NCBI RefSeq assembly: GCF_030145185.1
Contig: NZ_JAQYWB010000003.1
Span: forward strand, 1-64,000
Reading direction: 5' to 3'
DNA length: 64,000 nucleotides
Source of the DNA: Desulfoluna sp.
GTDB taxonomy: Bacteria; Desulfobacterota; Desulfobacteria; Desulfobacterales; Desulfolunaceae
In this document: positions 1-63,986 of the stretch, in pieces
Layout: each line of letters starts with the position of its first letter
Position numbering within the stretch: position 1 is the first letter of the stretch
Translations under genes and position numbers: made by a program
Notes under the pieces: model-generated
Databases searched by the model: none
What the model was told of the DNA's origin: nothing
The model's input: the letters and a program-made list of their open reading frames with translations, nothing else

Positions 1-150
1 TGGCTCACCTCGCCGCCGGAGGCCACCCGCTTTCGAGGTGGCTCACCTCGCCGCCGGAGGCCACCCGCTTTCGAGGTGGCTCACCTCGCCGCCGGAGGCA
101 ACCTGCTTTCGAGGTGGCTCACCTTGCCGCCGGAGGCCGCCAAGTTGAAG
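1..150 (-). repeat. 38-bp tandem repeat array built from family-A ends
   Basis: Three near-identical 38-bp units (1-38, 39-76, 77-114) and a partial fourth (from 115) follow each other with no spacers. Each unit joins the end of family A (CGCCGCCGGAGGC) to its AGGTGGCTCACCT hairpin. The array runs off the left edge of the window, so its full length is unknown. It looks like local amplification of one arm of the dispersed element. It is not CRISPR because there are no unique spacers. Confidence 0.85.
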
Positions 151-14735: not shown

Positions 14736-14766
14736 GCTTTTCATGCGCTGAAGAGTTGCCCCTGCT

Positions 14767-18454: not shown

Positions 18455-18497
18455 AAGCCTCCGGCGGCAAGGTGGCACACCTTGCCGCCGGAGGCTT
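18455..18497. repeat. Perfect 20-bp palindrome made of two fused family-A ends
   Basis: AAGCCTCCGGCGGCAAGGTG (18455-18474) is followed by a 3-nt loop and its exact reverse complement (18478-18497), with TTTTT next on the plus strand. It is the whole terminal module of family A joined back to back. It lies 23 bp from the stop of the upstream acyl-CoA dehydrogenase gene and could act as a strong transcript-stabilising or terminating hairpin. Confidence 0.9.
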
Positions 18498-54767: not shown

Positions 54768-55103
54768 AAGGCCTGTGTTGCGTTTGCTGGCATCCCGGTC
54801 AGGGTGGGCCACATGCGTGGGGTAGCCTGGACGGGATGACGGTTTCTGTATCCTTCATTAGGATGCCTCTGGACCCTGTTTCTACTGCGACGGGCCTGGC
54901 ATGAACCGGCATCAAAACAGTTTGAAAACCTATATTTATAGTATGGGGTGCGGGGTTTGTCAAAATCAATATAAGCGGTGGGGCCGGAAGGGGCATTCAG
55001 AGGTGGGGCTTAAGGGGGGTATGCACCTGGAAAAGACGCCGAAGCACCCGTTTTCAAAGGGACTCCTTTGGCTGCTGGTCGGGTGTTTTTTGTTATCAAA
55101 AAG

Positions 55104-55497
55104 GTAACTGTTCAACCCATGAAAAGCAGCCTCCGGCGGCAAGGTGGCGCCACCTTGAAAGCGGGTTTGCGAATGCTCTATCGGTGTCGGAACTCTCAGT
55201 GCCTCGCATCCGCATTCGCGTGAAGTGCGAGGAAACGCACAGTGCGTAACAAACGCGTGGGCTGTAGGTGTTCAGAATCCAATTCAACCGTTGACTATAA
55301 CCGGAATAACTCCGGCGGCAAGGTGGCGCCATCTTGAAAGCGGGTTTGCGAATGCTCTATCATTGTCGAAATTCTCAGGACCTCGCATCCACATTTTGTT
55401 CGACGTGAATCTGAGATAGGTATGAAGACCTGTTTATCAAACTTTTCAAAAGTTTGGTCCCCGGCAGGGCCGCCGGAGGCGTCAGCTCAATAGTGAC
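55104..55497. mobile_element. MITE-like element with IS66-type ends carrying family-A and B repeats
   Basis: Left end GTAACTGTTCAAC (55104-55116) and right end GCTCAATAGTGAC (55485-55497) are imperfect inverted repeats, each 11/13 to the perfect ends of the element at 63612-63978. TCAAAAAG occurs exactly on both outer sides (55096-55103 and 55498-55505), an 8-bp target duplication. IS66-family elements have GTAA ends and 8-bp duplications. Inside are two direct family-A copies (55127-55230, 55308-55400) and an inverted family-B copy (55429-55480), and no gene. The flanking spacer (54768-55103) holds nothing else. Confidence 0.8.
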
Positions 55498-55638
55498 TCA
55501 AAAAGAGCGGTATGGGCGAATAAGGGTTTGTCATGAAACCTTAAATCCATTATAATCCATACTTTTAAATATTCACCGGCCTCTTTTTGTGAGGGGCCGG
55601 TTCTTTATGATGGTACCGTCCCTGAAGTGGAGTCAGAT

Positions 55639-57084
55639 ATGGAATATGAAGTCGTCATTGGCCTTGAAATACACGCCCAGCTGAAAACCAACACGAAAAT
55701 CTTCTGCGGCTGTTCCACCGCCTTTGGGGCGGAGCCCAACAGCCAGACCTGTCCGGTCTGTACCGGGATGCCTGGTGTGCTGCCGGTGTTGAACAAAACG
55801 GCGGTGGCCTATGCGGCCCGGGCCGGGGTGGCCACGAACTGCACCATCAATCGGGTGAACCGGTTTGCCCGGAAGAACTATTTTTACCCGGATCTGCCCC
55901 TGGGCTATCAGATCACCCAGTTTGCACTGCCCATTGCCGAGCACGGTCATCTGGATATCGAGCTGCCGGACGGCGGTACCAAGCGTATCGGCATCACCCG
56001 GATTCATATGGAGAATGACGCTGGCAAGCTTAACCACGATCCCATGCGTCCCATCAGCCTGGTGAACCTCAACCGGGCCGGGGTTCCCTTGATCGAGATT
56101 GTCTCCGAGCCAGACATGCGCTCCGCCGCAGAGGCCGGCGTTCTCGTGCGGAAGATGCATCAGCTCGTGCGGCATATCGGGGTGTGCGACGGCAACATGG
56201 AAGAGGGGAGCCTGCGCTGTGACGCCAACGTCTCCCTGCGTCCCAAAGGCCAGGAAGAGTTCGGGACCCGCACCGAGATGAAAAACTTAAACTCCTTCCG
56301 AAACATCGAGCGGGCCATTCGCTACGAGATCAGCCGCCAGACCGATATCCTGGATAACGGGGGCGAGGTGATCCAGGAAACCCGCCTCTGGAACGCCGAC
56401 AAGGAGATCTCCACCTCCATGCGCAGCAAAGAGGATGCCCACGATTACCGGTATTTCCCCGATCCCGACCTCCTGCCCGTGGTGATCGATGATGCCTGGT
56501 ACGATGAGATCGTGAAGAGCCTGCCCGAACTGCCCGATGCCATGAAGGCGCGTTACGTGGAAACCTTAGGTCTTCCCGTGGGCGATGCCGAGGTGCTGAC
56601 CTCCACCCTCGAACTGGCCACCTATTTTGATGCCTGCCTGGCCGCACTGGGGACCCCAACGCCCAAACAGGCCAAGCTGGCAGCCAACTGGGTCATGGGC
56701 TCGGTGCTCGCCCTGCTGCACACCGAAGGCATGAGCCTGGCGACGGTCCCGGTTTCAGCCGACATGCTGGCCGGACTCCTCACCCTGGTGGAAAAAGACG
56801 TCATCAGCGGCACCATGGCCAAGACCGTCTTCGAAGAGATGGCGGCAACTGGCAAAGAGGCCAAAATCATTGTCGAGGAGAAGGGCCTCGCCCAGGTCTC
56901 CGATACCTCCGAGATCGAAGGCATCGTCGATACCATCCTCGCCAATAACCCCAGCGAAGTGGAAGCCTTCCGCGGCGGCAAGAAAAAGCTCATGGGCTTC
57001 TTCGTGGGCCAGGTCATGAAAGCCACCAAAGGCAAAGGCAACCCCAAGGTGGTGAATCAGCTCCTGGGCGAAAAGCTGAAATAG
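55639..57084 (+). CDS. gatB: Aspartyl/glutamyl-tRNA(Asn/Gln) amidotransferase subunit B
   Basis: 481 residues. [13 protein letters not shown] start, the zinc cysteines CGCS/CPVC (about 25-43), [14 protein letters not shown] and the C-terminal YqeY-like tail are typical. With GatA and GatC (not in the window) it converts misacylated Glu-tRNA-Gln to Gln-tRNA-Gln. The ATG at 55639 has GGAG 6 nt upstream; an in-frame GTG at 55627 is less likely. Its last 12 codons appear again, degenerate, at 57280-57315. Confidence 0.95.
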
Positions 57085-63428: not shown

Positions 63429-63603
63429 GTATTTATCGGAGAAGTAAGGGTCATTCTGGGGTCCTGGTCATTAACCTGAGAAAGGGTCTGGATTCAGACG
63501 TTTCATCCTTCCTCCGGGTGACCGCAATCTTTTTAAAATTCGCTTGTCAAACCTATCGAAAAAAATGGGCTAAAGTCCGCTGGAGGCACAAGCTGAATAG
63601 GAA

Positions 63604-63986
63604 CTGTTATTGTAACTATTCAGCGATCCATTTTTTCTTTATGGCCCCCGGTCTGACATCACCCTACGCTTTTCGTCTTTCCCGCGCAGGCGGGAATCCA
63701 TGTATGAAAATCCGTATCGTCCTCATTTTTACAATGACGTACCGGGTGGATGCATAGGGGTGCGCCGTGCGCACCGTCAGGCGTATCGTAAACCGGAAAC
63801 ACCGCATTTTGAAATAAGACTCGTGGTCATCGTTAACTTGCGAGGCTGAGGGTCCTCTCTACGGTAGAAGGTGCGGGAGCCGCACCCTAGGCGGTGATGA
63901 AAAGACGCGACGTATTGGCATTTGAATCTTTCTGTCATTTGCCTCGAACGACCTGGCGAAGGCAAGCTGAATAGTTACCTGTTATT
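63604..63986. mobile_element. MITE-like element with perfect IS66-type ends and 8-bp target duplication
   Basis: GTAACTATTCAGC (63612-63624) and its exact reverse complement GCTGAATAGTTAC (63966-63978) bound a 367-bp element. CTGTTATT lies directly outside both ends (63604-63611 and 63979-63986). The interior has no gene; it holds a TTCCCGC..GCGGGAA palindrome (63679-63696) and two family-D hairpins (63759-63775, 63870-63886). Just upstream, GGAGGCACAAGCTGAATAG (63582-63600) is a decayed right end of a related element. GTAA ends and 8-bp duplications are IS66-family features, so it is probably mobilised by an IS66 transposase elsewhere. Confidence 0.85.

What the first reader, a model, noticed from the sequence alone, without database searches (positions are those of the whole stretch)
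55096..55505. Spacer repeats ride inside an IS66-type MITE with exact 8-bp target duplication
GTAACTGTTCAAC and GCTCAATAGTGAC are inverted ends, and TCAAAAAG is repeated exactly on the outside of both. Inside are two family-A copies and one inverted family-B copy. This is direct evidence that the GCCTCCGG repeats can travel as cargo of a non-autonomous transposon, which links the repeats scattered through the window to a mobilisation mechanism.
Basis: partly seen in the sequence, partly recalled or inferred. Interest (0 to 1): 0.7.

Follow-up and report, generated by a model that had tools for sequence, protein, structure and literature searches.

The report
IS66-type mini-transposon carrying intergenic repeats
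A short piece of DNA upstream of gatB in a Desulfoluna bacterium is an old copy of a small jumping element that has no enzyme of its own and carries intergenic repeat sequences inside it; the family is real and has dozens of copies per genome in several species, but it is a known kind of thing and explains only a minority of the repeats in the window.

Summary
At 55104-55497, 394 bp are bounded by inverted ends GTAACTGTTCAAC / GTCACTATTGAGC (9 of 13 identical) and by an exact 8-bp duplication, TCAAAAAG. Inside are two tandem family-A copies (period 179 bp) and one inverted family-B copy. It is a member of a multi-copy MITE family. In 76 inverted end pairs from Desulfoluna and order relatives, 33 have an exact 8-bp duplication; none match exactly at 7 or 9 bp. 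The IS66 call holds: a genome of the same order has 1.76-kb elements with perfect GTAACTATTCAGC ends and 8-bp duplications that encode a one-ORF IS66 (ISBst12-type) transposase. A sister MITE in another Desulfoluna has a MITE-free orthologous site in D. spongiiphila.

Two corrections. First, the repeats are not incidental cargo: end + linker + A + inverted B + linker + end is the standard ~190-245-bp layout of this MITE in at least three genomes. The window copy is a divergent ~215-bp member plus one extra 179-bp A unit. Second, the MITE does not explain the scattered repeats. Only 3 of 26 repeat heads in the window sit next to an IS66 end, the others show no decayed ends, and related genera have the repeats without these ends. 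No cognate transposase was found in six Desulfoluna genomes.

The parts
55096..55103 (.). left target-site duplication TCAAAAAG
   Evidence: exact match to 55498-55505
55104..55116 (+). left terminal inverted repeat GTAACTGTTCAAC
   Evidence: matches genome-wide end GTAACTNTTCANC
55117..55128 (+). A-rich linker CCATGAAAAGCA, of the type seen at the A end of other MITE copies (TCATGAAAAGCA, TCAAAAAAACA)
55129..55307 (+). first family-A repeat (GCCTCCGGCGGC head, 179-bp tandem unit); the extra unit relative to the ~215-bp standard MITE
55308..55425 (+). second family-A copy, running into the MITE middle; position of the A half of a standard member
   Evidence: end of A portion approximate
55426..55480 (-). 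inverted family-B copy (GCCTCCGGCGGCCCTGCCGGGGACCAAAC...)
55481..55484 (+). right linker
55485..55497 (-). right terminal inverted repeat GTCACTATTGAGC (diverged)
55498..55505 (.). right target-site duplication TCAAAAAG
63612..63978 (.). second IS66-ended MITE in the window (367 bp, perfect ends, exact TSD CTGTTATT), of a subfamily without GCCTCCGG repeats; 92-94% identical to four other copies in the genome
14541..14759 (-). one-ended relic: IS66-like end GCAACTCTTCAGC + linker GCATGAAAAGCA + one family-A unit; no second end found
55528..55556 (+). promoter-like site TTGTCA-17-TATAAT for gatB, starting 22 bp after the right TSD; the MITE lies just upstream of it
   Evidence: sequence largely conserved in three relatives

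Best explanation
55104-55497 is a non-autonomous IS66-type element (MITE) that inserted upstream of gatB and duplicated 8 bp of target. Its ends are those of one-ORF IS66 elements (ISBst12 group), so a transposase of that type supplied in trans most likely moved it by binding the GTAACTATTCAGC ends (shown: ends, TSD, a same-end element with an IS66 transposase in another genus; inferred: that this transposase type moved it, and that it was once present in Desulfoluna). The family's usual body is one family-A repeat and one inverted family-B repeat facing outward a few bases inside the ends, so the repeats are copied each time the MITE moves. The window copy later gained a second 179-bp A unit, probably by recombination with other A copies (inferred), and its ends have decayed, so it is probably no longer mobile. 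Most GCCTCCGG repeats in the genome lie outside IS66 ends and spread in some other way; the MITE most likely arose when IS66 ends came to enclose a pre-existing A...B' repeat pair (inferred).
For: TSD and ends; 191 ends vs 4 control; 33/76 exact 8-bp TSDs and none at 7 or 9; MITEs with repeats at both ends: 20 exact + 12 one-mismatch TSD of 41; the pattern GTAACNNTTCANC-(2-25)-CCTCCGGC occurs 90, 156, 131 and 122 times in G000, G001, G002 and G005, with 0 control matches; window element minus one 179-bp unit = 215 bp and aligns end to end with MITEs of own genome, G005 and G001, 69-76% identical; IS66 elements of 1758 bp with identical 13-bp ends, 8-bp TSD and a 471-aa PF03050 protein in G017, and a 1718-bp one in G027 with a 63% identical protein; MITE-free orthologous site in D. 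spongiiphila for a G005 copy; published ISBst12-group ISDge4 has ends GTAACTGCTCAGCA / GTGACTACTCAGCA, one ORF and an 8-bp duplication (PMC12898284).
Against: No IS66 transposase with these ends in the six Desulfoluna genomes: own genome has two full-length IS66 copies with different ends, GTAAGCGTTCACG, whose transposase is only 21% identical to the cognate type. No precise empty site for the window copy: relatives lack it, but about 120 bp to its left and about 12 bp to its right do not align. No other copy of the 394-bp arrangement with two A units was found in this genome, so it was not shown to have moved in that form.
Confidence: 0.9

Rival explanations
1. Repeats inserted later: a short IS66 MITE landed first, and GCCTCCGG repeats, which favour intergenic sites, inserted into it afterwards.
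For: Repeats are abundant outside MITEs and intergenic; a repeat-free MITE subfamily exists; no other copy of the 394-bp form.
Against: The same end-linker-A...B'-linker-end layout recurs at dozens of sites in at least three genomes, with each head a few bases inside the TIR and recurring linkers; G005 copies are up to 99% identical over the whole element, repeats included, at sites with different TSDs.
Confidence: 0.07
2. The scattered GCCTCCGG repeats are themselves decayed IS66 MITEs, so the MITE explains all of them (strong form of the reader's claim).
For: Repeat-linked IS66 ends are 10-18% as numerous as exact GCCTCCGGCGGC heads in G000, G001, G002 and G005; one-ended relics exist (14747-14759).
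Against: Upstream of 60 repeat heads there is no excess of ends with 3-5 mismatches over control positions; several heads in the window lie within about 10 bp of the stop codon of a gene on the same strand; G006 and G007 have 95 and 66 heads with no exact ends.
Confidence: 0.07
3. Chance flank identity around a recombination-made cluster of repeats; no transposition at this site.
For: The right end has diverged and no precise empty site is available.
Against: 8 of 8 flank match next to ends shared by a family in which 48/76 pairs have a (near-)exact 8-bp TSD against 0.4% expected.
Confidence: 0.02

Closest known systems
ISBst12 group of the IS66 family (e.g. ISDge4 of Deinococcus geothermalis, PMC12898284)
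   Same: End sequence (GTAACTGCTCAGCA vs GTAACTATTCAGC), 8-bp target duplication, single-ORF DDE transposase in the full-length relatives with these ends (G017, G027)
   Different: The window element is 394 bp, encodes no transposase, and its body is intergenic repeats
Bacterial MITEs such as MITECca01 (PMC9769881) and MITEPsy1 (PMC3189936)
   Same: Short, TIR-bounded, non-coding, multi-copy, presumed moved in trans by a parental IS
   Different: IS66 ends; the body is an independent repeat family rather than a recognisable remnant of a parental IS; no parental IS found in the genus
REP/REPIN-type intergenic repeats
   Same: GCCTCCGGCGGC repeats are short, intergenic, partly palindromic and sometimes head-to-head (18457-18495)
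   Different: No consistent association with Y1/RAYT-type genes seen; tested only as neighbourhood within about 1.5 kb in the loci returned

Membership tests
IS66-derived MITE | 8-bp target-site duplication | tested here: met
   TCAAAAAG exact at this locus; family-wide 33/76 exact, 48/76 within one mismatch
IS66-derived MITE | Terminal inverted repeats starting GTAA and matching an IS66 element | tested here: met
   Family consensus GTAACTATTCAGC is identical to both ends of 1758-bp IS66 elements in G017; the window copy differs from it at 2 positions on each side, so its right end no longer reads GTAA; ISDge4 ends similar
IS66-derived MITE | No transposase gene of its own, short | tested here: met
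   394 bp; only short ORFs inside, none over 78 aa; typical members 190-245 bp
IS66-derived MITE | Multiple dispersed copies | tested here: met
IS66-derived MITE | Insertion shown by an empty site in a relative | tested here: inconclusive
   For the window copy the flanks cannot be aligned at the junction; met for a sister copy, G005 vs D. spongiiphila
IS66-derived MITE | Parental IS66 element in the same genome | tested here: not met
   Only IS66 copies with GTAAGCGTTCACG ends; none cognate in six genus genomes. Draft assemblies can lose repeats, but G001 is a single contig. Not a strictly required feature, since a MITE can outlive its parent
ISBst12 group (full-length relatives) | Single-ORF IS66 transposase (TnpC-like), no tnpA/tnpB | tested here: met
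   1758-bp elements carry one 471-aa PF03050 ORF as the only large ORF
REPIN/RAYT system | Repeats flank a RAYT (Y1) transposase gene | tested here: inconclusive
   Y1 hits exist in all six genomes, but most fetched loci have no nearby GCCTCCGG heads; many hits are partial and were not classified as RAYT

The most novel reading that the evidence does not exclude
An independent intergenic repeat family (GCCTCCGG A/B) was enclosed by IS66 ends and became a successful MITE in Desulfoluna, amplified to dozens of copies per genome by a transposase that has since been lost or comes from outside, so that two unrelated repeat-spreading routes now feed each other.
Probability: 0.4. Interest if true: 0.5.

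Novelty: new member of a known kind. Interest (0 to 1): 0.35.

Why it matters
It gives a clean, testable case of how intergenic repeats become part of a MITE and are spread by a transposase supplied in trans, and it supplies defined ends and a candidate transposase type (ISBst12-group IS66, little studied experimentally). The paper searches made here found no described IS66-derived MITE, but most subscription papers are not in that library.

Tried and rejected
Precise empty site for the window copy: not resolvable. RAYT association of the repeats: no clear link. Rfam: nothing in 54900-55700 beyond one hit far below its gathering score. The own-genome IS66 copies as parent: rejected, different ends. 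The IS66 transposase fragment on contig C98 (L204) matched the cognate transposase only at 54% over 50 residues and is preceded by a GTAAGCGTTCAGG sequence, so it is not the missing parent. Literature on GCCTCCGGCGGC as a bacterial repeat: nothing found. The element folds strongly as RNA (z -5.6), as expected for inverted repeats; no function is claimed.

Full report
The window lies in a Desulfoluna genome: its GatB is 92% identical to that of D. spongiiphila AA1, and five further genomes of the genus are held. G002 is taken to be D. spongiiphila because its gatB locus (L187) gives the same alignment coordinates and identities as L068 and both contigs are 233,096 bases long.

Observation. At 55104-55497 the ends GTAACTGTTCAAC and GTCACTATTGAGC (minus strand) face each other, with TCAAAAAG exactly repeated outside. 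Inside are two direct family-A copies 179 bp apart and a GCCTCCGGCGGC head on each flank pointing outward, the right one being the inverted family-B copy.

Is it a transposon? The genome has 191 exact GTAACTNTTCANC sites against 4 for the reversed control, nearly all GTAACTATTCAGC; four of the five other genus genomes also hold 49-133 exact GTAACTATTCAGC sites, the fifth (G003) none. Pairing inverted ends in the fetched loci (own genome, genus, and a few from order relatives) gives 76 distinct pairs: 33 have an exact 8-bp repeat on the flanks, none have an exact 7-, 9- or 10-bp repeat, and 48 match within one base, against 0.4% for re-paired flanks. The sample is not random (many loci were fetched because two ends lay close together), but that does not create 8-bp identity. 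For a G005 copy (192 bp, TSD ACGGATTT) the orthologous site in D. spongiiphila is continuous across the junction without the MITE, although the 8-mer itself has diverged.

Is it IS66? In G017 (same order) elements of 1758 bp have perfect GTAACTATTCAGC ends and an IS66 transposase of 471 aa (PF03050, E 1.1e-45) as the only large ORF; two have exact 8-bp duplications, and a third lies within a 1833-bp span that has one. G027 has a 1718-bp element with an 8-bp duplication and a 63% identical protein. Published ISDge4, ISBst12 group of IS66, has very similar ends, a single ORF and an 8-bp duplication (PMC12898284). The two full IS66 copies in the own genome are also one-ORF with 8-bp duplications, but their ends are GTAAGCGTTCACG and their protein is 21% identical. 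No cognate transposase was found in the genus; that the MITEs were moved in trans by a lost or external ISBst12-type transposase is inference.

Are the repeats cargo? The pattern end-(2-25 bp)-CCTCCGGC occurs 90, 156, 131, 122, 16 and 10 times in G000, G001, G002, G005, G004 and G003, controls 0. Linkers recur: A-rich (TCAAAAAAACA, TCATGAAAAGCA) at the A end, short (TTATG, TTGTG, TTG) at the B end. Removing one 179-bp unit from the window element leaves 215 bp that align end to end with 206-230-bp MITEs of the own genome, G005 and G001, at 69-76% identity in the five measured; G005 copies reach 99% identity to each other. The repeats are therefore a standing part of this MITE family. The window copy is an old member with decayed ends and an extra A unit that most likely came from the tandem A arrays seen elsewhere (inferred).

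Does it explain the scattered repeats? Mostly not. Of 26 non-coding repeat heads in the window, 3 adjoin an IS66 end. Over 60 heads in the window and own-genome loci, 5 have an end with at most 2 mismatches and there is no excess of weaker ends over control positions. Genera G006 and G007 of the same family have 95 and 66 exact heads but no exact GTAACTATTCAGC end. Several isolated heads begin within about 10 bp of the stop codon of a gene on the same strand, e.g. after tgt, queA and, about 20 bp on, gatB (gene names by my reading of the translations). The repeats thus look older and wider than the MITE, which would have enclosed a pair of them; that order of events is inferred.

Context. The MITE sits between a small minus-strand ORF and gatB. 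A promoter-like TTGTCA-17-TATAAT starts 22 bp beyond the right TSD and is largely conserved in three relatives, so the insertion left it intact. Relatives lack the window MITE, but the bases next to the junction do not align, so its own empty site is not shown; G001 has a different repeat plus an IS66 end close by (L186).

Noticed in passing
window 63588-63978: A repeat-free 367-bp IS66-ended MITE (TSD CTGTTATT) lies directly against what looks like the decayed right end of a GCCTCCGG-type MITE (GGAGGCACAAGCTGAATAGGAAC).
   Followed up: partly
L184 451-4536: In G017 a 4086-bp element with the same ends and TSD TAAAAATG holds a second IS66-like ORF (506 aa) and a 292-aa ORF besides its own transposase: a passenger-carrying or nested IS66 element.
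   Followed up: no
L044 1039-2496: Two MITEs about 1 kb apart share the same 8-bp flank CGCCAGCC on all four sides, with another MITE between them; suggests a local duplication or recombination product.
   Followed up: no
L153 503-567: A 65-bp mini-MITE: two perfect IS66 ends around a 24-bp GCCTCCGG near-palindrome, TSD with one mismatch.
   Followed up: no
window 12-137: Array of four family-A heads with a 38-bp period at the window's left edge; the 39-bp palindrome GCCTCCGGCGGCAAGGTGGCACACCTTGCCGCCGGAGGC at 18457-18495 is a related head-to-head form.
   Followed up: no
window 51922, 53517, 57104 and others: Isolated GCCTCCGG repeats start close behind the stop codons of tgt, queA and gatB, on the gene's strand; how these spread is unexplained.
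   Followed up: partly
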